A stretch of DNA of 64,000 nucleotides from Sulfitobacter sp. HNIBRBA3233 (GTDB lineage: Bacteria; Pseudomonadota; Alphaproteobacteria; Rhodobacterales; Rhodobacteraceae): positions 1,736,001-1,800,000 of the forward strand of contig NZ_JBEFLP010000001.1 of NCBI RefSeq assembly GCF_040149665.1, written 5' to 3'. Position numbers and translations under genes: made by a program. The notes under the pieces were generated by a model. It did no database searches. It was not told the DNA's origin and saw only the letters and a list, made by a program, of their open reading frames with translations. Positions 22,528-63,029 of this stretch are shown in pieces (position 1 is the first letter of the stretch; each line of letters starts with the position of its first letter).

Positions 22528-24393
22528 TCAGGCCCCCTCGTGGAAGTAGGCATAGATCGTCTCGGCCAGCGCATCGGACACACCGTCGACCGCCTTGAGA
22601 TCGCTCAGGTTGGCGCGCGATACCGCCTTGGCCGATCCGAAATGCGCCAGCAGCGCGCGTTTGCGCGCAGCCCCGACGCCCGGCACGTCATCGAGCGGGG
22701 TTGCCCCCACGGATTTCGCCCGCTTCGCGCGGTGGGTGCCGATGGCGAACCTGTGCGCCTCGTCCCTGAGCCGCTGGATGAAATAGAGGACCGGATCGTT
22801 GTGCCGCAGCGCCTTCACCGGCTTGCCGGTACGGTAGAACTCTTCCTTGCCCGCGTCACGGTCCTCGCCCTTGGCCACGCCCACCATGGGAATATCCTCT
22901 ACCCCGTATTCGCGCATGATCTCGCGCACGGCGCTGACCTGCCCCGCGCCGCCGTCGATCAGCAGAAGATCGGGCCAATGGCCTTCCTTCCGCTCCGGGT
23001 CCTCCTTGATCAGGCGCTTGAACCGGCGGGTCAGGACCTCTTTCATCATGCCGAAATCATCGCCGGGGGTAAGGCTGTCGCCGCGGATATTGAACTTGCG
23101 GTACTGGTTCTTCATCAACCCTTCCGGCCCCGCGACGATCATCGCGCCAACGGCGTAGGCCCCCTGAATATGCGAGTTGTCGTAGACCTCGATCCGCTCT
23201 GGCACCGCTTCTAGATCGAAGGCTTCCGCGATACCGCGCAGCAGTTTCGTCTGGGTGGCGCTTTCGGCCATCTTGCGGGCAAGGCTCTCGCGGGCGTTGC
23301 GCAGGGCACTGTCGATCAGCTCTGCCTTCTCGCCCCGCTGCGGCACCAGTATCTCGACCTTGCGGTCGATCTTGGTGCCCAGGGCTTCGGCCATCAGATC
23401 GGGGTTCTCGATCTCGTTGCTCAGGATCAGCTGGCGGGGCGGCTCACGGGTGTCGTAGAATTGCCCGACGAAGGCCTCCAGCACCTCGGCGGCATCCACA
23501 TCGTCGCCCACGCGCGGATAGTAGTCGTGGTTGCCCCAGTTCTGGCCGGAGCGGATGAAGAACACCTGCACACAGGCCTGACCGTCCTGAAGGTGGAGCG
23601 CGATGATGTCGGCTTCGGTCACGTTCCTGGGGTTGATGCCCTGTGCGGTCTGCACTTGCGTCAGCGCCTTGATCCGGTCCCGCAGGGCGGCGGCGCGTTC
23701 GAATTCCATATCCTCGCTCGCCTGCGCCATCTCGGCGGCAAGGCGGCCCTGAATATCGGTCGTCTTGCCCGACAGGAACTTCTGCGCGTCGCGCACGGTC
23801 TGGGCATAATCCGCGGCACTGATCTTGCCCACGCAGGGCGCCGAACACCGCTTGATCTGGTGTTGCAGGCACGGGCGCGTGCGGCTTTCGAACTGCGAAT
23901 TGCTGCAATCACGCAGCAGGAACACCCGCTGGAGCTGGTTCAATGTCCGGTTCACCGCCCCCGCGCTGGCGAAGGGGCCGTAATATGCGCCCTTTTCCTT
24001 CTTCGCACCGCGATGCTTCTTGATCTGCGGGTAGTCGTGGTCCGTCGTCACGAGAATGTTGGGGAAACTCTTGTCGTCGCGCAGCAGCACGTTGAACTTC
24101 GGCTTGAGCTGCTTGATGAGGTTTTGCTCGAGCAACAGCGCCTCGGTTTCGGTGCGCGTCGTCAGGAACATCATCGAGGCGGTATTCGAGATCATCCGCG
24201 CGATGCGCGGGCTGTGACCGGTGGGCCGCGCATAGCTGCTGACCCGTGCTTTCAGATTGCGTGCCTTGCCGACATAGAGAACGCGGCTTTCCGAATCCAG
24301 CATCCTGTAGACGCCCGGTGACCCGTCGAGCGTGCGAAGATATCCTTGGATAACCTCGTGTCCGAGTGGTTGCGTCTGGTCCGTTCCGGGCAT
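22528..24393 (-). CDS. uvrC: Excinuclease ABC subunit C
   Basis: UvrC makes the two incisions of nucleotide excision repair. The 621 residues show the GIY-YIG nuclease (SPGVYRMLDSESRVLYVGKA near residue 25), a cysteine cluster region, the UVR domain (ASEDMEFERAAALRDRIK near 215), the RNase H-like nuclease (EVYDNSHIQG near 415) and C-terminal helix-hairpin-helix repeats (LDDVPGVGAARKRAL). The ATG at 24393 is preceded by AGGAAAGAG; a GTG at 24420 has no ribosome site. Confidence 0.96.
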   Translation of the reverse strand: MPGTDQTQPLGHEVIQGYLRTLDGSPGVYRMLDSESRVLYVGKARNLKARVSSYARPTGHSPRIARMISNTASMMFLTTRTETEALLLEQNLIKQLKPKFNVLLRDDKSFPNILVTTDHDYPQIKKHRGAKKEKGAYYGPFASAGAVNRTLNQLQRVFLLRDCSNSQFESRTRPCLQHQIKRCSAPCVGKISAADYAQTVRDAQKFLSGKTTDIQGRLAAEMAQASEDMEFERAAALRDRIKALTQVQTAQGINPRNVTEADIIALHLQDGQACVQVFFIRSGQNWGNHDYYPRVGDDVDAAEVLEAFVGQFYDTREPPRQLILSNEIENPDLMAEALGTKIDRKVEILVPQRGEKAELIDSALRNARESLARKMAESATQTKLLRGIAEAFDLEAVPERIEVYDNSHIQGAYAVGAMIVAGPEGLMKNQYRKFNIRGDSLTPGDDFGMMKEVLTRRFKRLIKEDPERKEGHWPDLLLIDGGAGQVSAVREIMREYGVEDIPMVGVAKGEDRDAGKEEFYRTGKPVKALRHNDPVLYFIQRLRDEAHRFAIGTHRAKRAKSVGATPLDDVPGVGAARKRALLAHFGSAKAVSRANLSDLKAVDGVSDALAETIYAYFHEGA

Positions 24394-24677
24394 GGTCTGT
24401 CGATTCTCTTTCCTCTTCACGTTTCGCAGATCCGATCAATGCGAAACATGTCCACCGTTCCTGTGGATAACTGCGCGTATAACTTTTGGAAGCTATGTAT
24501 TTTGCCTTCAATTCTAAAGAGTTCGTTAATGTGCCCAATAAATGGGCATCAATATACATCATTGAAAACGTTAACTATTTTTATTGAAGCGCAAATCTCC
24601 CGCCTCCAAAACTGACCTAAGGTAACATCTCACAGCGCGATACGGTACCGGTGCAAAACTCCTGTAGTCACCTGCGT
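24394..24677. other. AT-rich intergenic region upstream of uvrC
   Basis: This gap is strikingly A+T-rich for the genome and holds no gene. It contains a perfect inverted repeat, TGCCCA and TGGGCA around ATAAA, at 24532-24548. It probably carries the promoter of the uvrC operon. I found no GTTC-N7-GTTC LexA box. Confidence 0.5.
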
Positions 24678-38317: not shown

Positions 38318-39571
38318 ATGACATTGATGACCTCTTGGGTGGAAAGCGCGAATGACGCCGCCTGCCCGTTTCCGCTCAATAACCTGCCCTACGGCGTGTT
38401 CTCGACCAACAGCCTCGAGCCGCGCTGCGGTGTGGCCATCGGCGACATGATCCTCGATATGGCCGCCGTGGAAGAGGCACGGCTGATCGAACTGGCCGAT
38501 GACCCCGTGTTCGATGTGCCCTACTGGAACGACGTGATGGAGTTGGGCCCGGAGGCTTGGGAAATCCTGCGCCTGCGCCTGATGGGTCTTTTGCACATCG
38601 ACTCCACCGAGCAGGCCGCCGTTGCGCCGCATCTGGTCCCGATGGCTGAGGCACGGATGGAAATGCCGCTGGTGGTGGCGGAATATACAGATTTCTACGC
38701 GGGCAAACACCACGCGAGCAATGTCGGCACCATGTTTCGCGGTGCCGAAAACGCGCTGCCGCCAAACTGGCTGCACATGCCCATCGGTTACAACGGGCGC
38801 GCGTCCTCCGTCGTGGTATCGGGCACCGACATCATCCGGCCCAACGGCCAGACCAAGGCGCCGGATGCCAATGCGCCCGTCTTCGGCCCCAGCAAACGGC
38901 TCGATATCGAACTTGAAATGGGGGCGATTGTCGGCAGCGCTTCGGAACTGGGCCATCCGGTGACGGTCGCACAGGCCGACGAGATGATCTTTGGCTACGT
39001 TTTGTTGAACGACTGGTCGGCGCGCGACATTCAGGCTTGGGAATACCAGCCGCTCGGGCCTTTTCAGGCCAAGGCATTTGCCACGTCGATCAGCCCGTGG
39101 ATCGTGACACGGGCGGCGCTGGAGCCGTTCCGCACATCCACGCCCGCCCGCGAGCGCGATCTGCTGCCCTATCTGCAAGAGCCGCGCCCGATGCTTTACG
39201 ATATCGCGCTGTCGGTCACGTTGCGCCCGGAGGGCGGCGAGGAGACGACCATCTGCGAAACCAACTACAGCGAGATGTATTACTCCTCCGCGCAGCAACT
39301 GGCCCATCACGCGAGTTCGGGCTGCGCCATGACACCGGGCGATCTGCTGGGGTCGGGCACCATTTCGGGTGCGGGCAAGCACCAGCGCGGTTGCCTGCTG
39401 GAACTGACCTGGGGCGGAGAGGATCCCATCGACATCGGCGGCGGACAGACCCGCAGCTTTATCGAGGACGGCGATACCCTGACCCTGCACGGCGCGGCGA
39501 AGGGTGACGGCTATACCGTCGGTTTCGGCACCTGCACCAGCACCATCAAACCGGCGGTCAAATTCCCGTAA
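38318..39571 (+). CDS. fahA: Fumarylacetoacetase
   Basis: Hydrolyses fumarylacetoacetate to fumarate and acetoacetate, the last step of tyrosine/homogentisate breakdown. The 417 residues carry the active-site block YTDFYAGKHHASNVGTMFRG near 120, FGPSKRLDIELEMGAIVG with metal-binding Glu near 195, and LNDWSARDIQAWEYQPLGPF near 230. No homogentisate dioxygenase or maleylacetoacetate isomerase gene is beside it. It is convergent with the reductive dehalogenase gene, only 9 bases apart. Confidence 0.95.
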   Translation: MTLMTSWVESANDAACPFPLNNLPYGVFSTNSLEPRCGVAIGDMILDMAAVEEARLIELADDPVFDVPYWNDVMELGPEAWEILRLRLMGLLHIDSTEQAAVAPHLVPMAEARMEMPLVVAEYTDFYAGKHHASNVGTMFRGAENALPPNWLHMPIGYNGRASSVVVSGTDIIRPNGQTKAPDANAPVFGPSKRLDIELEMGAIVGSASELGHPVTVAQADEMIFGYVLLNDWSARDIQAWEYQPLGPFQAKAFATSISPWIVTRAALEPFRTSTPARERDLLPYLQEPRPMLYDIALSVTLRPEGGEETTICETNYSEMYYSSAQQLAHHASSGCAMTPGDLLGSGTISGAGKHQRGCLLELTWGGEDPIDIGGGQTRSFIEDGDTLTLHGAAKGDGYTVGFGTCTSTIKPAVKFP

Positions 39572-39580
39572 AGGGCCGCG

Positions 39581-42500
39581 CTAAAGATCGATCTCGACCG
39601 TGCCGCCCGCTGTGGCGGCGCGGCTCTGGCACAGGATGATCTCCTGCGCGCGCTGCGCTTTGGACAGCACGAAGTCGCGGTGATCCACCTCGCCCGAGAT
39701 CACACCGCAGCGGCACACCCCGCAAATCCCGTCGGCGCATTTGAGATCGACGTGATAGCCGTTCTCGACCAGCACATCGGCGGCACTGCGGTCCGCTGGC
39801 ACGGTAAATTCCCTGCCGGAGCGGGCGAGCTTGAGTGTAAAGGGCGCGCTTGGCGTCTCGGCCCTTTCCGGAACCGCGAAATACTCCAGATGCACGGCCT
39901 CTTCGGGCAGGTCCGCGGCCTTTGCCGTCTCGACAACGGCCTGCATGAAGGGTTCAGCACCGCAGGTGTAGACATGGGCACCCTTCGGCAGGTCCGACAC
40001 GATCCGCGAGATATACGCGCGGCTGCCCTCGTCGCTGATGTGCAGCGTGACGCGATCCGCCCATGGCAACTGCGCCAGATCGTCCAGATAGGCCATGCGC
40101 GACCGGCTTCGTCCCGAATAGTGCAAAGCAAAACGCCTTCCGCTGGCGTGGAGCTGGTGCGCCATCGCGATCATCGGCGTCACACCGATCCCCCCGCCCA
40201 TCAGCAACGAGAACGGCGCGTCGTGCAGCGGGAAGTGGTTGATGGGCCGAGAAACGAACACCCTGCGTCCTTCGGCAAAGATGCGGTGCAGCAGTTTCGA
40301 TCCGCCGCGCCCGTGATCCTCGCGCAGCACGCCGATTTCGTAGCAGGATCTGTCGGCAGGATCGCCCGACATGGAGTATTGCCGCAGGTAATCCGGCGCC
40401 ACCACGATATCGAGGTGCGCGCCCGCCTCCCACGCTGGCAGATCCCCCCCGTCGGGGCGGCGAAAGCGGAACCTTGTGATTTCGGGCGTCATCCTGACCG
40501 CCTGCGCGATCTCAAGTTCCAGAACGGGGCTCTCGCCGGGCACGGTATAGACATGCTGGGGCGCCGCGCCCCGCGCCGCGCGGGCGCGATATTCATCGGC
40601 GGTGATCATCGCCTGATAGGCCTCGATCCCGCGCTCGCGGTCCATCGGATGCGGATAGGGCCACGGCGGCGGCGCCAGAGGGGCGGGATAGACGGCCAGC
40701 GTCTGGTCGGCGTAGCGCAATTTCAACCCGCGCTGAAGGGACCGCGCATTCACGGGGGCATCAGCGGCGCGGTATCCGCCGTCTTCCTTCACCTCGATGT
40801 CCCACCACCATTTCTTGACCGGGTTGATCCCGCCGCGCCCCGCCGCGTCGTCAATCCGCGCCAGCGCGGGCGCAAGCTGCGGCACGTTCATCGCGGCCCA
40901 GCGGAACGGGGCCTCCTTGAACACGCCCTCAAGGTTCCAGGGACAGGTTTTCATGCACCGTCCGCACATCGCGCCCCCCGGTGTGCCCAACCGGTATGTC
41001 GCGCATTTCTGGCTGTCGGATTTCCAGATCTCGTAGCCGTTGAACATCAGCTTCGGACCGGCGGTGATCGCGCCGGAGGGGCATTCGCGGGCGCATTTGT
41101 TGCACGATTCGCAAAACCGCTGGAGCCCGAAATCGATGGGGCGGTCATGCTCCATCGGCAGATCGGTCGTGACCACACCGGACTTCAGCCTCGGCCCCAG
41201 AAACGGGTTCAGAATGACCTCGCCGATGCGGCTGACCTCGCCCAGACCGCTGAGCAGCAGCAACGGCGGTTGCAGGACTTCACCGTCGGTGACCGTGTGC
41301 GCCTTCGCCCCGTATCCGAGCCGGCGCAGCTGCGCCGCCAGGACGCCGCCGATCAGCGAGAACCGCAGATAGGCACGCATGGACTGCGCGACCGAGATCC
41401 AGTCATCGCCCGACGCGCCCTCCATCGTTTCGAACCCCTGATCGATAATGATCGAGATGGCCTGATCGTGGGGCGGGTCGATGGGCGCGCCGCGCGCGTC
41501 GTGGCTGTACCATGTCCAGTCGGGGCACCGTGAAACGCCGACCGCATCCGCGCCCAGCCAATAGGCCGTCGCCTTGACCAGATCGGCAGCCTGTCGCGCC
41601 GTGAACTCGCGCCGCGTTGGCGCTGCCGCACCGTCCTGCAGAAGCGTGAACGCGCCCAGCGCCCGGCGCTGCGCCATCGCGGGGGCGGATCGCCGGATGT
41701 ACTGCCCTCCGCGCGCGGTGTCCTGCACCTTCTTGCCCATGTCGCCGAACTGGGCGCGCGCGAACATATCCGCACGCTTTGGCACCCGCGCGACGTTCGG
41801 CTCGTCTATGTAGGTTGTCGGCGTATCGACACGTTTCAGCCGCTCGAACGGGTGAGCCCCGTCACGGAAGCGGCGTTTGGCGTAGGGCGTTGCCGTCGAT
41901 GCGCGCTTGGCCGACCGCAGGCCGGTTTTCCACGCCAGCCCAAAGGCGCGGGCGGGCTGTTGCGCCATCGGGGCCAGCGGCAGGTCGGGTGCCATGGCAA
42001 AATCGGTCGTCACCACGGCAAGTCCGAACCGCGTCCCGATGTAGGGGTGTTTCAGCGTCCCATCTTCAAGCGTGACAAGCCCCGCCGCCGCCGCCATCCG
42101 ACCTGCATCGACATCGCTGCACGACGCGGTATGCGCCCGCGCGCGGTATCCCAGCAAGCGCAGGTATCCCGCCAAGACAACCGCCGTTTCCGAGGCCAGC
42201 AGCGCCGCGCGGTGGGCCTGGGCGTCCATGATCCAGTCGCACCCCGCCTCCCCCACCGCCGGAGCGCGGGGGTTTTCGTACATCAGGACCAGCGCGTGGG
42301 TATGCGCGTCGATGGTGGTGGGCTCCGCGTCCAGCGCCTCCTTGAGATCGGCCATGATGCTGTCGATCCCCGACGCCAGCGTTTTGGTCTGGCGCGTCTT
42401 GAGGTCTTCGGACAGGCGGGCAAGATCGGGGTTGAGGTGAGGCCGCGCCAGCACAGCCGCACCGGGGATTTCACAGATCCCGACCCCGGCGGCGTCACAG

Positions 42501-42781
42501 AAATATCCGAACGCCTTGAGATGTTGCGCGCGGGTGAGCGGGTCGTCGGGCACTTCGGCCACGGCCCCGTTCACAAGGCCCTCGCGGATCGCATCCATCA
42601 TCGCCTGATGGTCGCGCATCGCGTTGATGATCGAAGGCCCATCCTCCGCGCGCGCGAAGGTCAGCGCAGGCGAAACCGCGATGGCCTCCAGATCGGGCAG
42701 ATCCTTCTGCCGCGCCAGCATTTCGCAGGGATAGGGGCCGGCGTGGACGGGCCGTCTGGCATCTGAAAATATGCGGCCCAT
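39581..42781 (-). CDS. rdhA: Self-sufficient reductive dehalogenase (BhbA/NpRdhA type) fused to flavin reductase and [2Fe-2S] ferredoxin
   Basis: A cobalamin-dependent enzyme expected to remove halogen from aromatic compounds using NAD(P)H. The 1066 residues have three parts. Residues 1 to about 340 look like a degenerate copy of the catalytic part (HPYIGTRFGLAVVTTD near 242 matches NPFLGPRLKSGVVTTD near 522). The catalytic part ends with two [4Fe-4S] motifs: CESCNKCARECP at 557-568, then a Cys near 592 and CGRCMKTCP at 606-614. From about 740 on is a ferredoxin reductase domain (GGGIGVTPMIAMA near 860) and a plant-type [2Fe-2S] domain (CADGICGVCRCG from 1015). There is no Tat signal, as in catabolic cytoplasmic members. 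The start at 42781 has GGAGG 5 bases upstream. It follows a MarR gene on the same strand. Confidence 0.93.
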   Translation of the reverse strand: MGRIFSDARRPVHAGPYPCEMLARQKDLPDLEAIAVSPALTFARAEDGPSIINAMRDHQAMMDAIREGLVNGAVAEVPDDPLTRAQHLKAFGYFCDAAGVGICEIPGAAVLARPHLNPDLARLSEDLKTRQTKTLASGIDSIMADLKEALDAEPTTIDAHTHALVLMYENPRAPAVGEAGCDWIMDAQAHRAALLASETAVVLAGYLRLLGYRARAHTASCSDVDAGRMAAAAGLVTLEDGTLKHPYIGTRFGLAVVTTDFAMAPDLPLAPMAQQPARAFGLAWKTGLRSAKRASTATPYAKRRFRDGAHPFERLKRVDTPTTYIDEPNVARVPKRADMFARAQFGDMGKKVQDTARGGQYIRRSAPAMAQRRALGAFTLLQDGAAAPTRREFTARQAADLVKATAYWLGADAVGVSRCPDWTWYSHDARGAPIDPPHDQAISIIIDQGFETMEGASGDDWISVAQSMRAYLRFSLIGGVLAAQLRRLGYGAKAHTVTDGEVLQPPLLLLSGLGEVSRIGEVILNPFLGPRLKSGVVTTDLPMEHDRPIDFGLQRFCESCNKCARECPSGAITAGPKLMFNGYEIWKSDSQKCATYRLGTPGGAMCGRCMKTCPWNLEGVFKEAPFRWAAMNVPQLAPALARIDDAAGRGGINPVKKWWWDIEVKEDGGYRAADAPVNARSLQRGLKLRYADQTLAVYPAPLAPPPWPYPHPMDRERGIEAYQAMITADEYRARAARGAAPQHVYTVPGESPVLELEIAQAVRMTPEITRFRFRRPDGGDLPAWEAGAHLDIVVAPDYLRQYSMSGDPADRSCYEIGVLREDHGRGGSKLLHRIFAEGRRVFVSRPINHFPLHDAPFSLLMGGGIGVTPMIAMAHQLHASGRRFALHYSGRSRSRMAYLDDLAQLPWADRVTLHISDEGSRAYISRIVSDLPKGAHVYTCGAEPFMQAVVETAKAADLPEEAVHLEYFAVPERAETPSAPFTLKLARSGREFTVPADRSAADVLVENGYHVDLKCADGICGVCRCGVISGEVDHRDFVLSKAQRAQEIILCQSRAATAGGTVEIDL

Positions 42782-42902
42782 GGGCGCCTCCATCATGCTG
42801 GAAAAAGACTTTGCACCGAAGCGACGCCGGGGGCCAGTGGCCGCGAGGGCCGCAAGCGCGCGCCGCGTCCCAACGAACCGGTTGCCCGGCCCGCACGCGC
42901 AA

Positions 42903-43361
42903 TCAATTTTCCTCGGCGTCGATCCGGTTCATTTCGTCCTCTAGCAGGTCGAGCACCCGGATGAAGGTCTTTCGCTCCTCTTCAGACATGACCGACAGCA
43001 ACCGGTCCTGACGGTCATAGATCAGGGGCCGAACCTTCTGAAACAAGGCACGTCCGCGTTCGCTGAAGTCGATGACCTGCCCGCGCATGTCATCGGTGTT
43101 GGGGACCGCTTCCAGCAGACCCCGCTCTGTCATGTCGCGGATTGTCCGGCTCAACTGGCCCTTGTCCAGGCCGGTCTCGCGCACGATCTCTGCCGGTGTC
43201 GTCTTGCCCAGCGCATCGAGCATGAACAAAACCCGCCACTGCATGACCGATAGCCGCTGATGATCGCGCAACAACTGCGCGATCTGGGCTGATAACCGCG
43301 CCTGTACCCGCGCGATCCTGAAGCCGAACATCGACCTCAAATTAACTCGTTTATGGTGCAC
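42903..43361 (-). CDS. MarR family transcriptional regulator
   Basis: A 152-residue winged-helix regulator. The DNA-binding part is seen as LSVMQWRVLFMLDALGKTTP near residue 37 and TGLDKGQLSRTIRDMTERGL near 63, then the wing DDMRGQVIDFSERGRAL. The start may be the GTG at 43361 or the ATG at 43331, which has TTGAGG upstream. It is the first gene before rdhA, 121 bases from it, and MarR-type regulators are known beside aerobic rdhA genes, so it is the likely regulator of the dehalogenase. Confidence 0.92.
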   Translation of the reverse strand: MHHKRVNLRSMFGFRIARVQARLSAQIAQLLRDHQRLSVMQWRVLFMLDALGKTTPAEIVRETGLDKGQLSRTIRDMTERGLLEAVPNTDDMRGQVIDFSERGRALFQKVRPLIYDRQDRLLSVMSEEERKTFIRVLDLLEDEMNRIDAEEN

Positions 43362-49365: not shown

Positions 49366-52300
49366 TCAGGATGTTGTTGCCAGCAGGCTTGCGTTGCCGC
49401 CCGCTGCCGTCGTGTCGATGCAAAGATGCCGCTCAAGGACGTAGCGCCACGGTGCGATACTTTCGGTCACAAGCGGCAAGATCGCCCCATCGCGCTCGGA
49501 CAATGCGATGCGCAGGCTGCGTGTCCAGTCGGACGCCCCCGCGGCCGCCACCACAGAAAACCCCTCCAAATCGACCAGTGTTTCGGGATCGAGCATTCCA
49601 TCGAGGGCCACGACCGGCGCACCTGCCGCGACCAAAGCATTGGCCATCGAGGCCGCAGCGCCCGGGACGACGATCACCGCACCGCACCCCGCACCGAGGG
49701 CCTGAATGGCCTGCGCCACCGCAATTTCTGGTGTCGGACCAAGGCACAGGACCGTCCCGCGCGGGAACATACGCAGGCGATTGCTCTCCCCCGTGGGGCC
49801 GGGCAAGGTCTGGGGCGTGGTATCAAAAGCCGCTGTTTCGGCCAGTGCCTTGCGCACCACGCCGGTCCGGCCCGTCAATGCCGCCCTGAGCACCGAGACA
49901 CGGTCCGCCCGTGCGGCCCAATTGCGGGCATCGATCTTTTCGATCGCCGCGTCGATTGCGCTGCGGGGCATCACTGTGCCGTATGGTTCGACAGCGGGAT
50001 CCGCTTTGCCAATGCGGCGGAACCGCGTGAGATAGTGCGGCCCCCCCGCCTTCGGTCCTGTGCCGGACAGGCCTTCACCACCAAACGGCTGGCTGCCGAC
50101 GATCGCACCGATCTGGTTGCGGTTTACATAGGCGTTGCCGACCTGGATCCGCTCCACGATCTGCTCGACCCGGTCGTCGATCCGGGTGTGCAGCCCGAAT
50201 GTCAGGCCGTAGCCGCGATCGTTGATCTCGTCGACGACCTTGTCGATATCCCGCGCCCGGAAGGTTGCGACATGCAGCACAGGGCCAAAAATCTCGCGCT
50301 CCATATCGGCGATGCCATTCACCTTTACCACGGCGGGAGTGGCATAGGTGCCGTGCGCAGGTACGTCGAGTTTCTTCAGCAGCGTGCCGGCTTTTTCATG
50401 CTCGGCCACATACTCCATGACCATCTTTTGCGCATCCGCGTCGATCACGGGCGATACGTCGACATCCGTTGACCACGGATCGCCCGTCACCAGCGCATCC
50501 ATTGCACCGTAGAGCATTTCTGTCAGCCGTTCCTCGGCTTCTTTCTGCACATAGAGGATCCGCAGCGCCGAACAGCGCTGGCCCGCAGACTGGAAGGACG
50601 AGATCAGAATGTCGCGCACGGCCTGCTCGGTCAGGGCGGAGGAATCCACCATCATCGCGTTCAGACCGCCGGTTTCGGCGATCAGCACCGCGTCGGCACC
50701 GGCGTTCTTGGCCAAGGCCTTGTGGATGATCTGCGCCACCTCGGTGGAGCCTGTAAAGCAGACGCCGGCGATCCGCGGGTCGCTGGTCAGCGGGCCGCCG
50801 ACCGTCGGGCCATCACCGGGCAGCAATTGCAGGACCGCCTCAGGCAGTCCCGCCTCGCGCATCAATTCGACAGCGCGTTGCGCGATGATCGGGGTCTGTT
50901 CGGCCGGTTTGGCGAGGACCACGTTGCCGACAGCCAAGGCCGCCGCGATTTGCCCCGAGAAAATTGCCAATGGGAAATTCCACGGGCTGATGCAGACAAA
51001 AATACCCAAAGCACTGCCCGGCTCCTCGTTCTCCAGACGCTCGGCTTCGTTCGCGTAGTAGCGCAAGAAATCGACCGCTTCGCGGACCTCGGCGATCCCG
51101 TCCAGCACGGTCTTGCCGGCCTCGCGGGTCGTGATCGAAGTAAGCTCCGCGATGTTCTCTTCGTAGAGGTCCGCGATCTTGCGCAGGATCGCCGCCCGCT
51201 CTTCCACCGGGGTCGCCGCCCAGTCCTCGAAGGCCGATTGCGCCGCGGTCAGGGCCGTCTCGACCTCGTCGGGAGTCGCATCGTAGATCTTGCCCACGAC
51301 ACGGTCAGGGTCTGCGGGCGACAGCGCATCGCGCGCCTCTCCCTGCGGTGCAGACAGGCCGGCCACCATCGGGCCACCGACCCATTGTTTGTCAGCGAAC
51401 TCTTCGCGGGCCGCAAGCAGCGGTAGGATCGATGCAGGTTCGTTCACGCGGAAACCCTTGGAATTCCTGCGCTGGGGCATGAACATATCCCACGGCTGCG
51501 CAATCGTCGGGTTACCAACCTGAGCGCCCAAAGCCTTGACCTGATCGACCGGATCCTTGGAGATCGCCTCCGACGGGATGTCCGTATCCACGATCTGGTT
51601 CACGAAGGACGAGTTGGCCCCGTTCTCCAGCAGACGCCGGACGAGATACGCGAGCAAATCCCGGTGGGCCCCGACGGGCGCATAGATGCGGCAGCGCGTG
51701 CCCTCCGCCTTCATGACGATCTCGTGGAGTGATTCACCCATGCCATGCAAGCGCTGGAATTCGAAGCTGTTCTTGTCATTGCCGGCCATCGCGATCACGG
51801 CTGCGCAGGTATGGGCATTGTGCGTTGCGAACTGAGGATAAATCCGGTCGCGGCGGTCCATGAGCATTTGTGCACAGGCCATGTAGCTCAGGTCGGTATT
51901 GACCTTGCGGGTAAAGACAGGGAACCGCTCCACGCCCAATTCCTGTGCAATCTTGATCTCGGTGTCCCAATATGCACCTTTGACCAGACGCACCATGATC
52001 TTGCGATCATACCTTTCGGCCATGTCATAAAGGGTCTCGATCACGGGGGCGGCCCGGCGGCCGTAGGCTTGGACCACCACGCCGAAGCCCTCCCAGCCTG
52101 CAAGCTCGGGATCCGAGAGCAGCGCCTCGATCACATCGAGAGACAGGTCCAGGCGGTCCTGCTCCTCCGCGTCGATGTTGAAACCGATATTGGCTTGGGC
52201 CGCTTGCTTGGCCAGTTCCAACGCGCGGGGGACCAATTCACGCATGACTGTTTCTTTGTGCGTATATTCGTAGCGCGGATGCAGCGCGGACAGCTTGACA

Positions 52301-53034
52301 GAAATCCCCGGGCTCGAACGGACATCACCCTTGGCTGCTTTCTCAATCGACGCAATCGCATCGCTGTAGGCCTTCTGATAGCGCTTGGCATCATCGTCGG
52401 TCCGTGCCGCCTCGCCCAGCATGTCGTATGAATACGTGTAGCCCTCGGCCTCTTCGCTGCGCGCGTTCTTCATGCCTTCCGAAATGGTTTGGCCCAGAAC
52501 GAACTGACGGCCGAGAATACGCATGGATTGCCCCACCGCTTTGCGTACAATCGGTTCGCCCATCCGCTTGACCAACCCGCGCAGGACGCGAGCAGGTCCT
52601 TTGGGATCGTCATCGAGAACGCGGCCCGTCAGCATGAGCGCCCAAGTGGATGCATTCACCAAAGACGAGGAAGACTGGCCCAAATGCGCGCCCCAATTCG
52701 ACGGGGCAATCTTGTCTTCGATCAAGTCATCAATCGTCTCGGCATCTGGAACCCGCAGCAAAGCCTCGGCCAGACACATCAGCCCGACGCCTTCCTCTGT
52801 CGACAGACCGTATTCGGCAAGAAATGCCTCCATCATCGACGGCGATGTTTCCTTGCGGACACGGTCCACATAACGTGCACCCGCCTTGGCAACCTTGGCG
52901 CGGTCTGCATCGGACAGCTTGATCTGTTCCGACAGCAACGCGACGACCTCTGCTTCTTCGACTTTGTATCTCTCGCGTACAAGCGACCTATACTTATTTT
53001 CATTGATTATATCGGAATTCGTATGGCTATTCAT
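49366..53034 (-). CDS. putA: Bifunctional proline dehydrogenase / glutamate-semialdehyde dehydrogenase
   Basis: Oxidises proline to glutamate in two steps, passing electrons to FAD/quinone and then NAD+. From the ATG at 53034 (MNSHTNSDIINENKYRSL) it has 1222 residues. The proline dehydrogenase barrel shows SVKLSALHPRYEYTH near 255 and KGAYWDTEIKIAQELG near 355. The aldehyde dehydrogenase has FTGSTEVAQ near 760, AETGGLNAM with the Glu near 785, and the catalytic Cys in QSAGQRCSALR near 820. A C-terminal domain follows. There is no ribbon-helix-helix domain at the N terminus, so it should not be a repressor. It lies between IS6 copies. Confidence 0.96.
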   Translation of the reverse strand: MNSHTNSDIINENKYRSLVRERYKVEEAEVVALLSEQIKLSDADRAKVAKAGARYVDRVRKETSPSMMEAFLAEYGLSTEEGVGLMCLAEALLRVPDAETIDDLIEDKIAPSNWGAHLGQSSSSLVNASTWALMLTGRVLDDDPKGPARVLRGLVKRMGEPIVRKAVGQSMRILGRQFVLGQTISEGMKNARSEEAEGYTYSYDMLGEAARTDDDAKRYQKAYSDAIASIEKAAKGDVRSSPGISVKLSALHPRYEYTHKETVMRELVPRALELAKQAAQANIGFNIDAEEQDRLDLSLDVIEALLSDPELAGWEGFGVVVQAYGRRAAPVIETLYDMAERYDRKIMVRLVKGAYWDTEIKIAQELGVERFPVFTRKVNTDLSYMACAQMLMDRRDRIYPQFATHNAHTCAAVIAMAGNDKNSFEFQRLHGMGESLHEIVMKAEGTRCRIYAPVGAHRDLLAYLVRRLLENGANSSFVNQIVDTDIPSEAISKDPVDQVKALGAQVGNPTIAQPWDMFMPQRRNSKGFRVNEPASILPLLAAREEFADKQWVGGPMVAGLSAPQGEARDALSPADPDRVVGKIYDATPDEVETALTAAQSAFEDWAATPVEERAAILRKIADLYEENIAELTSITTREAGKTVLDGIAEVREAVDFLRYYANEAERLENEEPGSALGIFVCISPWNFPLAIFSGQIAAALAVGNVVLAKPAEQTPIIAQRAVELMREAGLPEAVLQLLPGDGPTVGGPLTSDPRIAGVCFTGSTEVAQIIHKALAKNAGADAVLIAETGGLNAMMVDSSALTEQAVRDILISSFQSAGQRCSALRILYVQKEAEERLTEMLYGAMDALVTGDPWSTDVDVSPVIDADAQKMVMEYVAEHEKAGTLLKKLDVPAHGTYATPAVVKVNGIADMEREIFGPVLHVATFRARDIDKVVDEINDRGYGLTFGLHTRIDDRVEQIVERIQVGNAYVNRNQIGAIVGSQPFGGEGLSGTGPKAGGPHYLTRFRRIGKADPAVEPYGTVMPRSAIDAAIEKIDARNWAARADRVSVLRAALTGRTGVVRKALAETAAFDTTPQTLPGPTGESNRLRMFPRGTVLCLGPTPEIAVAQAIQALGAGCGAVIVVPGAAASMANALVAAGAPVVALDGMLDPETLVDLEGFSVVAAAGASDWTRSLRIALSERDGAILPLVTESIAPWRYVLERHLCIDTTAAGGNASLLATTS

Positions 53035-53157
53035 TCTGGATTCCCTATCGGCAATGAGTTCACTCGACGCTATTGGTGGTAGCACCCCGGGTCAAGCAGA
53101 CGGTAAAACGGGATGGTTGCAACCCTCCGTAGACGGCATCGGCACTTGCCAAAAAGA

Positions 53158-53975
53158 GGCTCTGTCAGACCAATTCGAACCAGTCTCAGTTCACCGCCAG
53201 ATGTCTGAACCTATGCCGAACAAAGCTGGCGCCACCCGGCGAGGGCGGCGGCGCGGTTCAGCTTGAAATCGTCACGTGTGTAGAGGTGGCGTTCCTGGTT
53301 GAAGTGGTTGCAGACAGAAGCATGAACGGCGGCGAATTTTTGCAGACATCGCATCTGCCGGAAGCGGAGCATCGCGCGTTCCCGTCGTCGGAAAGGTAGA
53401 TGCGAATTCTCCGCCCGGTTGTTCTGCCAACGGCCTGTTTCCTGTCGACTGGTGTTGCCGATGACCTTCATCGCGGCACCATAGGAGCGGAGTTTATCGG
53501 TCACGATCATTTCCGGATTGCCGTACCGCTTCATTGATTTCCTGAGGAATTTCAATGCGGCCTTACGATCCCGGCGCTTCGTGACGTAGCTCTCCAGCAC
53601 CTCGCCTTCGTGGTCGACGGCCTGCCACAAGTAATGCGTCGCGCCGTTGATCCTCACGAAAACCTCGTCGAGATGCCAACGCCAGTTCGAGTAACACCGC
53701 AACTTCTGGATACGTTTGCGGCGGATTTCAGCGGCAAACATCGGGCCAAATCTATTCCACCAGAAGCGGATGGTTTCGTGGCTCACATCGATGCCCCGTT
53801 CTTGCAACAGATCCTCGACATTTCTAAGTGACAACGGGAACCGAACGTAGAGCATCACTGCCAGGCGGATGATCTCAGGATTGGTTTTAAAGTAGCGAAA
53901 TGGAGAGCGTTTTGTCATCTGGCCAAACGACAAAACCGCCACACCCGTCTCAAGCCAGCTTCCTCTGACAATGCA
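53158..53975 (-). mobile_element. Intact IS6-family insertion sequence (about 818 bp)
   Basis: The ends are GGCTCTGTCAGACC at 53158 and, read inward from 53975, TGCATTGTCAGAGG, imperfect inverted repeats sharing TGTCAGA. A complete transposase fills it. The flanks show no 8-base direct repeat, so it may have arrived by cointegration or the flank was later rearranged. Exact ends are uncertain by a few bases. Confidence 0.75.
53211..53918 (-). CDS. IS6-family transposase
   Basis: A complete 235-residue DDE transposase from MTKRSPFRYFKTNPEIIRLA. The HTH is around NVEDLLQERGIDVSHETIRF. The acidic residues are Asp in WHLDEVFVRING near 80, Asp in VTDKLRSYGA near 135 and Glu in NRAENSHLPFRRRERAMLRF near 170. 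The frame continues 20 codons upstream, but family members begin at MTKR. It is intact and could be active. Confidence 0.92.
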   Translation of the reverse strand: MTKRSPFRYFKTNPEIIRLAVMLYVRFPLSLRNVEDLLQERGIDVSHETIRFWWNRFGPMFAAEIRRKRIQKLRCYSNWRWHLDEVFVRINGATHYLWQAVDHEGEVLESYVTKRRDRKAALKFLRKSMKRYGNPEMIVTDKLRSYGAAMKVIGNTSRQETGRWQNNRAENSHLPFRRRERAMLRFRQMRCLQKFAAVHASVCNHFNQERHLYTRDDFKLNRAAALAGWRQLCSA

Positions 53976-54034
53976 CACCGCTCGGTTTTAGAACCGTGAA
54001 TCACGCGCCTACGCGGAAATCATTGGGCCTTGAC

Positions 54035-56542: not shown

Positions 56543-58024
56543 TCAACTCCGCATCCTCGGTTTGTTGATCTGTTCGCGCCGACACCGTACCCGCATCGGA
56601 TCATCATGCGGCAGGGTGCGCCAGAAGCCATTACCCTTGGACCAATTCAGAAATTGGCTGAAGCTGTCGACCTGATCATCGTGTCGGCTGCGGGGAAAGC
56701 CCTGTAACTCGCGTTTAAATTCAGGGAGCCAGGGTGCCTCGCGCGGGAGGAGGACATTGCCAGCCTGCACCGGGGCACAGGCCGAGTTGAAACGGATTTC
56801 CTTGTTCTTTTCGGGGCGAACAAGGATGAACCGTGACTGGTCGGTCTGGCGGCATTCCTGTAGCAGGGGTCTGCCAGTTGCCGCATCCTCGATCAGGACC
56901 CGATCGGCTTTCCAAAGGTCACCGAGTGCGATTGCCTTGTGCTTGAGATCTGGAAAATCCAATCGACCACGGTATACATCCAAGAGATGCCACCTGTTCC
57001 CTTTGACCCCCCAGGTCGTGCACACGGAATAATCCGACCGAGGGTCTGCCGACATGCCGGTGTCCCAACTTTGGATGATCATCTGGTAGCCGTCGCGCTG
57101 TGCGACAGCCTCGTAGGTACCGAACCATTCCCACCTCAAGGGCGAGCCGTCAGGCGCGATCGGATTCTGCTGATATTGGCAGTTGAAAGTAGCCGCCCCC
57201 ATTTCGCGGCGCGTGCGTTCAAGGTCCTCAAGCCCCATGCGTTGGGGGAACAGCGCTTCACTGACATTGCGTCGATGGACCCTGCCCTGCCCCAGTGCCA
57301 CCACTTCGGATTTTTCGGCAATGGCTGGCAGCTCGAGATGCCGATATCCCCCTTTCCCCAGCAGATAGCCGGGCGGATCCATTTCGTGCAGGCGCTGCGC
57401 GATCATCACCACCCGGCCCTCCGAAGGGTTGTCAAACCGCGACAGCAAAGAACCGTCGATATAGTTCTGCGCCCTTTCAAGTTCGACCTCAGACGTGGCA
57501 TCCCCGGCCTTCATCAGATCGTCGATGATGATGTAGTCCGCGCCATGCCCGGTCACTGCACCGCCGATGGAGACGGATTTGCGTCCCCCACCGCTAGATG
57601 TCTTGAGCTCATCCATAGTGTTGCCGCGCTGAGCCAACCGAGTTCCGGGGAAGAGGCGGTGGTACCAGGCCGCATTCATGATCCGGAGGCAATCTCCGGA
57701 ATGTTTCTTGGCAAGATCGAGTCCGTAACTTGCAACAACGATCTTGGAATTTGGGTGATGCCCCAGCACGAAGGCCGCAAAGGCCACCGCCACCGTGATC
57801 GACTTGAGGTGTCGTGGCGGCACGTTAATGATTAACCGCTTGTTCTCACCTGCCCGAACTTTGTCCAACTCATGGCACATGGCTTCCACATGCCAGGTAG
57901 GCACGAACTGGGATGTCGCTCCGGGATGCAGCTCATCAAAGCAGCGCCAAACGAAGGCGTAAAAACTGGTGCGATATAGCGCATCAGTGATCATGCGGGC
58001 TTCAACAGGATCAATCTGTTTCAT
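56543..58024 (-). CDS. Phage terminase large subunit
   Basis: The motor that packages phage DNA, 493 residues. The ATPase site is the variant Walker A NVPPRHLKSI near residue 68, with Walker B DYIIIDDLM near 150. The nuclease half has SWDTGMSADPRSDYSVCTTW near 320 and DDQVDSFSQFLNW near 455. It overlaps the DUF5681 gene by four bases. No portal, capsid or tail genes are nearby, so it is a remnant or belongs to a small element without structural genes. Confidence 0.92.
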   Translation of the reverse strand: MKQIDPVEARMITDALYRTSFYAFVWRCFDELHPGATSQFVPTWHVEAMCHELDKVRAGENKRLIINVPPRHLKSITVAVAFAAFVLGHHPNSKIVVASYGLDLAKKHSGDCLRIMNAAWYHRLFPGTRLAQRGNTMDELKTSSGGGRKSVSIGGAVTGHGADYIIIDDLMKAGDATSEVELERAQNYIDGSLLSRFDNPSEGRVVMIAQRLHEMDPPGYLLGKGGYRHLELPAIAEKSEVVALGQGRVHRRNVSEALFPQRMGLEDLERTRREMGAATFNCQYQQNPIAPDGSPLRWEWFGTYEAVAQRDGYQMIIQSWDTGMSADPRSDYSVCTTWGVKGNRWHLLDVYRGRLDFPDLKHKAIALGDLWKADRVLIEDAATGRPLLQECRQTDQSRFILVRPEKNKEIRFNSACAPVQAGNVLLPREAPWLPEFKRELQGFPRSRHDDQVDSFSQFLNWSKGNGFWRTLPHDDPMRVRCRREQINKPRMRS

Positions 58025-58449
58025 GGCCCTGCCCCCCCATCATCCCCGGACCCACCCGATTCTTTTCGGATCTGGGCCGTGAAGTGCGCCAAAACCGCTT
58101 CGTCCGTTTTGTCCAGCGTAGTACCCATTGGCTGATCCATTTTAGTGCTGTCAGCTGATCCAACAAAAGAGCTGTCAATCGTCACGAGCATCCTCAAAGC
58201 TGCCATGTCGCCTTTAAGAGCAAGTTCCACCAAGCGCTTTGCGCCCGCCTCCGCCTTGGATATGTAGACGGAATGGTCGCCCTCCCGAACCATGATCTTC
58301 GCTTCCAATTCACGGTTGAGGCTAGCAATAAGTCCCTTGGCCCCTTTTGGTCGCCCTTTCGGATTGCCAGATTTTCCTTTTTGGAACCGGCTGGCTGTCG
58401 GCGGCTTGCCGTAACCCACTTCGTACTCGGGTTCATCCTTCTTAGACAT
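58021..58449 (-). CDS. DUF5681 family protein (probable terminase partner)
   Basis: A 142-residue protein with the DUF5681 signature at residues 8-38: YEVGYGKPP, then RFQKGKSGNPKGRPKGAKG. Such proteins commonly sit directly before terminase large subunits and may serve as the small, DNA-recognising subunit; that role is inference. It overlaps the terminase gene by four bases and the methyltransferase gene by eight. Confidence 0.85.
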   Translation of the reverse strand: MSKKDEPEYEVGYGKPPTASRFQKGKSGNPKGRPKGAKGLIASLNRELEAKIMVREGDHSVYISKAEAGAKRLVELALKGDMAALRMLVTIDSSFVGSADSTKMDQPMGTTLDKTDEAVLAHFTAQIRKESGGSGDDGGAGP

Positions 58450-59842: not shown

Positions 59843-60370
59843 GTTGGCTTCCTCTCAAATGCGTCGGCGCGCGACACGGTTTCAAAAGGATCAGGTCGGG
59901 ATTTTTGGAGAGAGCATAGATAGCAACTCCCCGGACCGAGTGATCCGAGTTGTTGCCCTTTGGAATGCTCGATTTCGACCAAGATCAGATCGGATCTGGG
60001 TCTACAGCAAGCCTGGATCGGGTCCAGACGTACAGCGTGCTGCCACCAGGGCGGTAGTCGTGATGTTCCGATATGGAACGCCCTTAAGCTAGCCAACTTT
60101 CTCCTGACCGACAAGGCCTAAAACGACCTAAGCCATTGCTGACGAACAATCAATTACCTCCCACCAGCAATGCGCGCCGACGGCCGCGGGTCAAAATCCT
60201 GCTAGAATACCATCACGACGCGAGCCTCTCGCCATCCGTCCCGGCCTTCCGGCACAAAGGACTGGACTGCTCCGGTAAAGCACGCATCAATGGCCCCACG
60301 CCCGACCCTGTTTCGGGCGCTCCTCAGTACAGGGTCTGCACCCCGCAGCCCCGCGCAGAGGAGCAAGTGA
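59843..60370. other. Divergent regulatory region of the phage-like element
   Basis: A 528-base gap between the divergent methyltransferase and recombinase runs; no gene is supported. It contains a small palindrome, GTTCCGATATGGAAC at 60065-60079, and an inverted repeat with GACCCTGT/ACAGGGTC arms at 60304-60336. It should hold the promoters of both runs. Confidence 0.5.
60304..60336. promoter_or_regulatory. Inverted repeat upstream of the recombinase operon, candidate operator
   Basis: Perfect eight-base arms GACCCTGT (60304-60311) and ACAGGGTC (60329-60336) are separated by 17 bases and end 34 bases before the first gene of the recombinase run. The CCCTGT core recurs beyond the recombinase gene. 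Confidence 0.45.
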
Positions 60371-60598
60371 ATGTCAAAACCCAAGCAAACCAAGACCGCA
60401 AAAGTAACGGCCATGTTGCAGCGCCCGTCGGGCGCCACGCTGGAGGCGATCTGCAAAGCCACCGGCTGGCAGCCCCATTCGGCACGAGCAGCCTTGAGCG
60501 GGCTGCGCAAGGCCAACCATCAGATTGAACGCATCGCAAAGGAGGGAAGCGCCGCCTCCGTTTACCGGATTGTTTCCAGCACCGAGGCCCCGTCATGA
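60371..60598 (+). CDS. DUF3489-like small HTH protein
   Basis: A 75-residue basic protein with a winged-helix-like pattern: KVTAMLQRPSGATLEAICKA, then TGWQPHSARAALSGLRKA. Such DUF3489 proteins accompany DUF2924 and serine recombinases in alphaproteobacterial elements. A GAGGAG ribosome site lies about 10 bases before the ATG. It is coupled to the next gene by an ATGA overlap. It may regulate the run or assist recombination. Confidence 0.82.
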   Translation: MSKPKQTKTAKVTAMLQRPSGATLEAICKATGWQPHSARAALSGLRKANHQIERIAKEGSAASVYRIVSSTEAPS

Positions 60599-62666: not shown

Positions 62667-62670
62667 CCAC

Positions 62671-62863: not shown

Positions 62864-63029
62864 ACCCAGAAAACCGGACCGGCGTTTTGAGCACAGTGAG
62901 ACGACTGGCATTCAACCTGCCAATGGGCCCACCACGGGGCGTCTCTGTTGGTGTGGGGGTTTCGCAAATAGCGGGAATTGCGCAAAAATTCTGCGCTGTT
63001 CGGTCATCGAAAATGGAGACAAGGGTGGG

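What the first reader, a model, noticed from the sequence alone, without database searches (positions are those of the whole stretch)
39581..42781. Self-sufficient reductive dehalogenase with built-in electron supply
One gene encodes a cobalamin-type dehalogenase with both [4Fe-4S] motifs (CESCNKCARECP; Cys, then CGRCMKTCP) and, in the same chain, a ferredoxin reductase and a plant-type [2Fe-2S] domain. It has no Tat signal. This is the layout of the aerobic, catabolic BhbA/NpRdhA group, rare among bacteria. In an aerobic marine-type alphaproteobacterium it points to use or detoxification of brominated or chlorinated aromatics with NAD(P)H alone.
Basis: partly seen in the sequence, partly recalled or inferred. 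Interest (0 to 1): 0.85.

Follow-up and report, generated by a model that had tools for sequence, protein, structure and literature searches.

The report
Marine bacterial enzyme removing bromine, known type
The gene encodes a self-powered vitamin-B12 enzyme of a type already shown in a related bacterium to strip bromine or iodine from phenols, and its neighbours in related marine bacteria hint that its natural food is brominated breakdown products of tyrosine.

Summary
One minus-strand gene (39581-42781; 1,066 aa) fuses a cobalamin reductive dehalogenase with both [4Fe-4S] motifs to a phthalate-dioxygenase-reductase/[2Fe-2S] module. NpRdhA's catalytic Tyr426, Lys488 and Arg552 align with Y476, K538 and R602, and these are invariant in 138 of 138 full-length homologues. 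It is not QueG (22.6 bits against a cut-off of 200).

It is a known kind. BhbA (50.7% identical, same layout) and Jhaorihella JtRdhA are described examples. JtRdhA is NADPH-driven and oxygen-tolerant, and acts on bromo- and iodophenols but not chlorophenols (PMC10463259).

The added result is genomic context. In some relatives rdhA follows an hpaE-D-G-H (homoprotocatechuate) gene run and/or abuts the homogentisate cluster, in several geometries. The window matches the ancestral homogentisate locus of its genus, with fahA left beside rdhA. I infer that the native substrate is an ortho-brominated 4-hydroxyphenylacetate/tyrosine derivative. That is untested; 85 of 102 loci show no such link, and this strain lacks hpaB and hpaD. 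New member of a known kind.

The parts
39581..42781 (-). rdhA: self-sufficient catabolic reductive dehalogenase, 1,066 aa from the ATG at 42781 (the open frame begins at 42796, 1,071 aa; residue numbers in this report count from 42796)
42787..42791 (-). GGAGG Shine-Dalgarno-like site 5 nt before the ATG at 42781
   Evidence: sequence read
40553..42775 (-). reductive dehalogenase module (residues 8-748), including the N-terminal half that corresponds to NpRdhA's vestigial duplicate domain
   Evidence: alignment to 4ras/6zxu, q8-110 and q163-748
42311..42466 (-). residues 111-162: 52 residues where NpRdhA has about 10; consistent with the insert described for the reductase-fused type, identity with it not tested
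   Evidence: gap between the two aligned stretches; insert described in PMC10463259 section 4
41369..41371 (-). catalytic Tyr476 (NpRdhA Y426)
   Evidence: alignment; Y in 138 of 138
41183..41185 (-). Lys538 (NpRdhA K488)
   Evidence: alignment, where chain 6zy0 has Q instead of K in that column; K in 138 of 138
40991..40993 (-). Arg602 (NpRdhA R552)
   Evidence: alignment; R in 138 of 138
41078..41113 (-). first [4Fe-4S] motif CESCNKCARECP (C562, C565, C568, C572)
   Evidence: invariant in 138 of 138
40940..41005 (-). second [4Fe-4S] motif C598 ... CGRCMKTCP (C611, C614, C618)
   Evidence: invariant in 138 of 138
39605..40546 (-). phthalate-dioxygenase-reductase-like module (residues 751-1064): flavin and NAD(P)H domains, then [2Fe-2S]
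   Evidence: 2pia E 2.3e-57; Pfam NAD_binding_1 and Fer2
39629..39739 (-). plant-type [2Fe-2S] Cys (C1020, C1025, C1028, C1056)
   Evidence: Fer2 Pfam; kept in 137-138 of 138
38318..39571 (+). fahA, fumarylacetoacetase (last step of homogentisate degradation), convergent with rdhA, 9 bp between the two stop codons
   Evidence: TIGR01266 518 bits, cut-off 375; spacing; 87% identical to the hmg-cluster fahA of G034
42903..43361 (-). MarR-family regulator upstream of rdhA on the same strand; candidate ligand-responsive regulator (inference)
   Evidence: PF12802 51.5 bits; best NCBIfam BilQ/HpaR about 40 bits, below cut-offs; weak MarR relatives (about 27-31%) also lie next to rdhA in L087, L133, L135, L136, L137 and L191
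36061..37128 (+). DegQ/HtrA-type protease, a landmark: it lies beside the homogentisate cluster in relatives
   Evidence: synteny
22528..24420 (-). uvrC, far landmark of the same ancestral locus
   Evidence: Pfam; synteny

Best explanation
[quoted passage not shown] Electrons pass from NAD(P)H to the flavin, to the [2Fe-2S] cluster, to the two [4Fe-4S] clusters and to base-off cobalamin. The halogen ortho to a phenol OH is removed at cobalt, with Tyr476 (supported by Lys538/Arg602) giving the proton. The most likely native substrates are ortho-brominated (or iodinated) para-substituted phenols such as 3-bromo-4-hydroxyphenylacetate and 3-bromo-4-hydroxybenzoate, formed in the sea from brominated tyrosine and related compounds. 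The dehalogenated phenol then enters ordinary aerobic ring cleavage. Shown here: domain layout, catalytic and cluster residues, orthology, near-core presence in the genus, and physical linkage of rdhA to homoprotocatechuate and homogentisate genes in some relatives. Inferred: activity, electron path, substrate and physiological role.
For: NpRdhA and phthalate dioxygenase reductase are the best solved relatives of the two halves. F345, S472, M473, Y476, K538, R602 and all [4Fe-4S] Cys are invariant in 138 of 138 homologues, BhbA included; the same NpRdhA residues are listed as conserved in JtRdhA (PMC10463259 section 15). The genome has cobN over its cut-off, which suggests its own cobalamin; the rest of that pathway was not checked. 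Context: hpaE-D-G-H directly before rdhA on the same strand in 5 of 135 non-duplicate loci (L024, L031, L143, L144, L147), and homogentisate genes within 10 kb in 16 of 135. In L147 hpaR, hpaE, hpaD and hpaH pass their curated cut-offs; hpaF passes Pfam CHMI only, and hpaG is named from the FAA_hydrolase Pfam family and its place (in L031 hpaG is below the HpaG cut-offs). hpaH and rdhA are about 66 bp apart in L143 and L147. 11 of 53 rdhA-bearing genomes of the genus have hmgA within 10 kb, expected about 0.3 if placed at random (the genomes are related, so this is not a true probability). JtRdhA turns over 3-bromo-4-hydroxyphenylacetate at 99% of its top rate, and lets E. coli W grow on it (PMC10463259 sections 10, 14).
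Against: In the window genome the hpa pathway is missing (no hpaD over cut-off; no HpaB) and the full homogentisate cluster lies elsewhere, so the substrate inference rests on relatives. In 85 of 102 counted rows rdhA is not near these genes; by eye, other lineages keep it beside an ABC transporter and acyl-CoA genes, or beside genes that look like CoxMSL subunits (not scanned against families). On the RdhA tree linkage is clustered by kinship (7 changes where shuffles average 16; 5 forced).
Confidence: 0.86

Rival explanations
1. Detoxification rather than catabolism: the enzyme removes bromine from toxic bromophenols made by algae, worms or sponges, and the products are not used for growth. 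Linkage to ring-cleavage genes is then incidental.
For: rdhA stands apart from the hmg/hpa genes in 85 of 102 counted rows; the window genome lacks hpaB/hpaD; the window's rdhA is beside a MarR-type regulator, often a stress or toxin sensor (recalled), and weak MarR relatives sit next to rdhA in several other loci.
Against: hpaE-D-G-H precede rdhA in 5 loci and the homogentisate cluster abuts it in several geometries; the window genome has pobA, HPPD and a full hmg cluster that could consume debrominated products.
Confidence: 0.35
2. The linkage to hmg/hpa genes is neutral inherited synteny: rdhA landed beside the homogentisate locus in an ancestor and stayed, with no pathway link.
For: The linked state is clustered on the RdhA tree, and the hmg locus is itself a stable uvrC-degQ neighbourhood in this genus, so one insertion could be inherited by many.
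Against: At least three different geometries (rdhA convergent with the cluster; co-directional at its 3' end; on the hmgA-MarR side), links both to hpa and to hmg, links in records labelled Tateyamaria, Ascidiaceihabitans, Planktomarina and Roseicyclus, and 5 changes of state forced by supported branches (changes may be gains or losses).
Confidence: 0.35
3. It acts mainly on chlorinated aromatics or on a substrate outside halophenols.
For: Residues outside the invariant set vary between homologues; NpRdhA, a relative without the reductase, does reduce chlorinated compounds according to PMC10463259 section 15.
Against: The active-site residues F291, S422, M423, Y426, K488, R552 of NpRdhA are all kept, and the fused relative JtRdhA shows no turnover of the chloro and fluoro compounds listed as tested (PMC10463259 section 10).
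Confidence: 0.1
4. It is an epoxyqueuosine reductase (QueG) or another class III cobalamin enzyme misread as a dehalogenase.
For: QueG scores weakly (22.6 bits).
Against: TIGR02486 over its cut-off, QueG about a tenth of its cut-off; fused reductase; best structure NpRdhA at E 2e-157.
Confidence: 0.01

Closest known systems
JtRdhA, Jhaorihella thermophila (WP_104007082; PMC10463259)
   Same: Described layout: no Tat signal, duplicated cobalamin domain, two [4Fe-4S], fused phthalate-dioxygenase-reductase domain with flavin and [2Fe-2S]; the same NpRdhA active-site residues kept; marine bacterium.
   Different: Its sequence was not among the records I fetched, so identity to it was not measured; the window protein has no assay; its gene neighbourhood is a remnant homogentisate locus.
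BhbA, Comamonas sp. 7D-2 plasmid pBHB (WP_015585978; locus L187)
   Same: Same length (1,071 aa open frames), same domains, all catalytic and cluster residues.
   Different: 50.7% identical; BhbA lies on a plasmid typed conjugative, IncP, with protocatechuate 4,5-dioxygenase genes and porins, serving bromoxynil degradation (PMC10463259 introduction); the window gene is on a 2.7 Mb contig.
NpRdhA, Nitratireductor pacificus (PDB 4ras, 6zxu)
   Same: Reductive dehalogenase module, vestigial N-terminal half, catalytic Y426/K488/R552, cluster ligands.
   Different: No fused reductase; [quoted passage not shown] lacks most of residues 111-162 of the window protein.
Ros_A3X954, Roseobacter sp. MED193 (PMC13101508)
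   Same: Tat-less catabolic reductive dehalogenase of a roseobacter, debrominates 2,6-dibromophenol.
   Different: Reported highly oxygen-sensitive, cluster motifs at residues 283-345 (CDICTKCADACP / CAICMRVCP), no fused reductase described; a separate type. MED193 also carries a fused homologue 66.6% identical to the window's (L089).
hpa (homoprotocatechuate) and hmg (homogentisate) catabolic clusters
   Same: In some relatives they have rdhA as neighbour or next gene; the window keeps fahA beside rdhA.
   Different: The window itself has no hmgA, hpaD/G/H, FAD-monooxygenase or metallo-hydrolase of these clusters.

Membership tests
Self-sufficient catabolic reductive dehalogenase (BhbA/JtRdhA type) | Reductive dehalogenase core over the curated cut-off | tested here: met
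   TIGR02486 182.1 bits, cut-off 160.35
Self-sufficient catabolic reductive dehalogenase (BhbA/JtRdhA type) | Two [4Fe-4S] motifs | tested here: met
   8 Cys, invariant in 138 of 138
Self-sufficient catabolic reductive dehalogenase (BhbA/JtRdhA type) | Catalytic Tyr, Lys, Arg and nearby substrate residues of NpRdhA | tested here: met
   Y476, K538, R602, F345, S472, M473 (alignment; 138 of 138)
Self-sufficient catabolic reductive dehalogenase (BhbA/JtRdhA type) | Vestigial N-terminal copy of the cobalamin domain | tested here: met
   By sequence only: residues 8-110 and 163 onward align with the N-terminal half of NpRdhA; no structure model could be made
Self-sufficient catabolic reductive dehalogenase (BhbA/JtRdhA type) | C-terminal phthalate-dioxygenase-reductase module with [2Fe-2S] | tested here: met
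   2pia q751-1064 E 2.3e-57; Fer2 39.8 bits
Self-sufficient catabolic reductive dehalogenase (BhbA/JtRdhA type) | No Tat signal, cytoplasmic | tested here: met
   By eye in the translation; no signal-peptide program was available
Self-sufficient catabolic reductive dehalogenase (BhbA/JtRdhA type) | Binds cobalamin; NAD(P)H-dependent dehalogenation, oxygen tolerance | not testable with these tools
   needs protein; cobalamin-contact residues were not examined one by one
Respiratory reductive dehalogenase (PceA type) | Tat signal and RdhB membrane anchor gene alongside | tested here: not met
   no Tat motif by eye; the adjoining genes are fahA and a MarR gene; no search for RdhB elsewhere in the genome
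Epoxyqueuosine reductase QueG | TIGR00276 over cut-off | tested here: not met
   22.6 bits, cut-off 200
hpa / hmg catabolic cluster (window locus) | hmgA with fahA, or hpaD with hpaE, at the locus | tested here: not met
   of the baits only fahA (and a distant match of hpaE to the aldehyde dehydrogenase part of putA) is found in the window besides rdhA; hmgA is about 1.4 Mb away, no hpaD over cut-off in the genome

The most novel reading that the evidence does not exclude
In roseobacters the fused reductive dehalogenase is a near-core enzyme of natural halogen cycling. It is the entry step of a built-in module (hpaR / hpaF-E-D-G-H-rdhA, often beside hmgA-fahA) for aerobic growth on brominated 4-hydroxyphenylacetate or tyrosine derivatives, the same combination that Fisher et al. 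assembled by hand in E. coli W. The window is a decayed version of that module, keeping rdhA and the native fahA after the rest of the homogentisate cluster was replaced elsewhere in the genome.
Probability: 0.45. Interest if true: 0.55.

Novelty: new member of a known kind. Interest (0 to 1): 0.36.

Why it matters
The enzyme type is known, and its natural substrate is not settled in what I read. Gene order across relatives gives a concrete candidate, brominated 4-hydroxyphenylacetate/tyrosine derivatives. It also indicates that debromination may be a routine trait of a common marine genus rather than a rare pollutant-degrading skill. That makes marine bromine cycling testable in culturable roseobacters.

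Tried and rejected
Rejected: QueG or other class III enzyme; respiratory type (no Tat by eye, no RdhB alongside); a recent plasmid-borne gene in this strain (contig C1 is 2.7 Mb; uvrC/cydA/degQ order shared with relatives), though close homologues do occur on plasmids elsewhere (8 of 72,556 plasmid records hold a match over at least 80% of the query). Conserved window neighbourhood: FMN reductase, glyoxalase-like, AidB-like and symporter genes of the window are not kept near rdhA in the loci (one weak AidB match, L081); MarR is kept only as distant relatives.

The control I chose for chance linkage, uvrC, was not neutral: it lies near hmgA in many genomes of the genus and in the window. I therefore used it as a landmark, and the chance figure (0.5% per genome; 11 of 53) is an analytic estimate that ignores kinship.

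I first thought the fahA in the window was a second copy that came with rdhA. The tree says the reverse: it groups with the ordinary hmg-cluster fahA of near relatives (G034, 87%), while the copy beside hmgA elsewhere in this genome is the divergent one. The pairing of WIN with the rdhA-linked L150 in that tree is weak (88/45). Linked and unlinked fahA or hmgA copies do not form two clades (7 and 5 changes).

Counting of linkage: linked rows were counted whatever their length, unlinked rows only if the locus is at least 17 kb; the window counts as linked through fahA alone; 36 of 138 rows were not counted; L139, L140 and L142, which show no link, had been dropped as interrupted.

hpaD presence against rdhA presence in the genus: 27 of 53 with rdhA, 1 of 9 without, one-sided Fisher p 0.028, kinship ignored: weak, not used as evidence.

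Literature: linkage of reductive dehalogenase with homogentisate, homoprotocatechuate or hydroxyphenylacetate genes was looked for (listings) and by a term search of PMC10463259; nothing seen. The library holds open papers only; I did not look up the BhbA and NpRdhA original papers.
Full report
OBSERVATION. The window holds one long open frame on the minus strand, 39581-42796. Three in-frame ATGs open it. The third, at 42781, has GGAGG five bases before it and lies where the alignment to NpRdhA begins, so the finding's coordinates are right; only the strand was missing. phmmer against the PDB gives NpRdhA (4ras E 2.2e-157; 6zxu and 6zy0 similar) over residues 8-110 and 163-748, and phthalate dioxygenase reductase (2pia, E 2.3e-57) over 751-1064. 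TIGR02486 passes its cut-off and QueG does not.

CATALYTIC RESIDUES. In the alignment NpRdhA Y426, K488 and R552 fall on Y476, K538 and R602; chain 6zy0 has Q in place of K488 in exactly that column. F291, S422 and M423, also named as active-site residues in PMC10463259 (section 15), fall on F345, S472 and M473. I aligned 138 full-length homologues (window included; four interrupted or partial copies, L139, L140, L142 and L192, were dropped). All six residues and the eight [4Fe-4S] Cys are invariant in 138 of 138; the [2Fe-2S] Cys are kept in 137 or 138. Individual cobalamin contacts were not examined.

WHAT IS KNOWN. Fisher et al. 2023 (PMC10463259; I read the abstract and introduction, sections 4, 10, 14, 15 and a term search) describe JtRdhA with this layout: NADPH-dependent, oxygen-tolerant, active on bromo- and iodophenols, with the chloro compounds tested only inhibiting. 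Its best substrates are 3,5-dibromo-4-hydroxybenzoate and 3-bromo-4-hydroxyphenylacetate, and it lets E. coli W grow on the latter. Their Figure 1 legend lists a Ruegeria pomeroyi homologue. Li et al. 2026 (PMC13101508; abstract, the introduction, part 1 of the results and section 10, discussion) describe a different, short debrominase from Roseobacter MED193 and say that putative bhbA homologues are widely distributed in the Roseobacter clade. BhbA itself (Comamonas plasmid pBHB, L187) is 50.7% identical to the window protein. The type is known, so this is a new member.

DISTRIBUTION. The window's genus is Sulfitobacter in the broad sense (inference): five loci of unnamed same-genus genomes are identical over their whole length to named contigs, one titled Sulfitobacter undariae, three Sulfitobacter sp., one Rhodobacteraceae bacterium. 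In one search, 53 of 62 genomes of the genus have a match to the dehalogenase module. These are the window genome, 48 whole genes, one cut by a contig end (G026) and three interrupted (G028, G038, G045). The nine without are G003, G004, G010, G036, G037, G041, G051, G059 and G061; three of these genomes are under 90% complete. Outside the genus, 8 of 26 genomes of the family have the fused form (G062, G066, G068, G070, G074, G075, G076, G081). Among 57 further genomes of the class no fused form is in the listed matches (the list was cut at an E-value near 1e-25), and three (G088, G094, G130) match over the dehalogenase module only, at 43-47%. A scan of named genomes found 415 stretches encoding a relative, some of which may be the reductase part alone; the 80 kept all span nearly the whole protein, most titled as Rhodobacterales, with a few Hyphomicrobiales and five Granulosicoccaceae. 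Eight of 72,556 plasmid records hold a match over at least 80% of the query. 'Rare among bacteria' is therefore not a good description for this lineage.

CONTEXT IN RELATIVES. I took up to 20 kb around rdhA from 60 genus and family genomes, with the 80 named loci; five genus loci duplicate named ones, leaving 135. With family models naming the neighbours, five of 135 loci (L024, L031, L143, L144, L147) have hpaE-D-G-H directly before rdhA on the same strand; L143 and L147 show an hpaR gene divergent from hpaF-E-D-G-H-rdhA with about 66 bp between hpaH and rdhA. HpaR, HpaE, HpaD and HpaH of L147 pass their curated cut-offs; HpaF is under its NCBIfam cut-off but over Pfam CHMI's; HpaG rests on the FAA_hydrolase family and its place. 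Sixteen of 135 loci have homogentisate genes within 10 kb, in at least three geometries: convergent with the cluster (L024, L031, L143, L144, L145, L147, L150, L162); at its 3' end in the same direction (L023, L054, L063, L153); on the hmgA/MarR side (L149); and 4.5-4.8 kb away (L029, L133, L136). Eleven of 53 rdhA-bearing genomes of the genus have hmgA within 10 kb, against about 0.3 expected at random (kinship ignored). Against this, 85 of 102 counted rows show no such link (36 of 138 rows were not counted), and the linked state is clustered by kinship with 7 changes, 5 forced. By eye, other lineages keep rdhA beside an ABC transporter and acyl-CoA genes, or in Ruegeria beside genes that look like CoxMSL subunits (not scanned against families). 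A MarR-family gene stands next to rdhA in the window and, as distant relatives, in L087, L133, L135, L136, L137 and L191; one is also annotated beside rdhA on the Jannaschia M317 plasmid.

THE WINDOW'S OWN LOCUS. fahA (38318-39571, plus strand) ends 9 bp from the end of rdhA. In G030, the sister of the window protein on the RdhA tree (95, SH-like; by identity L143 is nearest, 74%), the order is uvrC, cydA, histidine kinase, degQ, PCuAC gene, then about 8.7 kb of other sequence, MarR, hmgA, fahA, metallo-hydrolase, FAD-monooxygenase, rdhA. In G034 the order is the same without that stretch and without rdhA, and with maiA at the end. The window has uvrC, cydA, kinase, degQ, PCuAC, fahA, rdhA: the same place with MarR-hmgA and the two genes between fahA and rdhA missing. 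The genome has a whole homogentisate cluster elsewhere (C1 near 336 kb; hmgA, fahA, metallo-hydrolase, FAD-monooxygenase, maiA, MarR), whose fahA is only 70% identical to the window's. The window's fahA groups with the hmg-cluster fahA of near relatives (87% to G034), and the other copy sits on a long branch. The simplest reading is that the old cluster decayed after replacement, leaving fahA and rdhA. The genome also has pobA, HPPD and cobN, but no HpaB and no hpaD over cut-off.

MECHANISM. By family: NAD(P)H to flavin to [2Fe-2S] to two [4Fe-4S] to cobalamin, halogen removed at cobalt, proton from the Tyr-Lys/Arg site. The cluster ligands and the Tyr, Lys and Arg are present; flavin, NAD(P)H and cobalamin contacts were not examined one by one. 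The electron path and the chemistry are inferred from JtRdhA and NpRdhA. For the substrate, the gene order in relatives and JtRdhA's preference point to ortho-bromo 4-hydroxyphenyl acids, which after debromination would enter the homoprotocatechuate or homogentisate route, or through pobA the protocatechuate route. In the window strain the hpa route is absent, so use via homogentisate or 4-hydroxybenzoate, or plain detoxification, remain open.

VERDICT. It is an ordinary member of a described and interesting enzyme type. The added value is the genomic evidence for a natural bromo-hydroxyphenyl-acid pathway, which I did not find stated in the papers searched.

Noticed in passing
L143, L144, L147, L024, L031: hpaE-D-G-H (with hpaF and hpaR seen in L143 and L147) run straight into rdhA: the pathway combination that was engineered in E. 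coli W in PMC10463259 exists naturally.
   Followed up: yes
window 38318-39571 and G000:C1:336424-342000 (L166): Two fumarylacetoacetase genes in one genome: the native one stranded beside rdhA, a divergent one in a complete homogentisate cluster elsewhere, suggesting replacement of the cluster.
   Followed up: partly
window 56543-63106: Terminase-like gene (PF17289), DNA methylase, a recombinase-domain gene and a tRNA-Arg at 63030-63106: perhaps a remnant of an integrated phage or gene-transfer element.
   Followed up: no
window 53211-53978: IS240-type DDE transposase next to putA (49366-53085).
   Followed up: no
L139, L140, L142 (G028, G038, G045) and L192 (Yoonia sp. SS1-5 plasmid): Interrupted or frame-broken rdhA copies: the gene may be decaying in a few relatives, or these are assembly errors.
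   Followed up: partly
G088:C24, G088:C110, G130:C22, G094:C339: Homologues matching over the dehalogenase module alone, 43-47% identical, in other families of the class: perhaps NpRdhA-like types without a fused reductase (G094's may be cut by its contig).
   Followed up: no
G031:C99:8180, G052:C9:74296, G021:C1:1440235 and others: A second, more distant RdhA-like gene (31-34%, residues about 384-670) in a number of genomes of the genus, perhaps the Ros_A3X954 type.
   Followed up: no
L041, L070, L081, L083, L091, L094, L096, L097, L098: In Ruegeria loci rdhA is followed by genes that look by eye like CoxM/CoxS/CoxL (molybdenum hydroxylase) subunits; not scanned against families, function and substrate unknown.
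   Followed up: no
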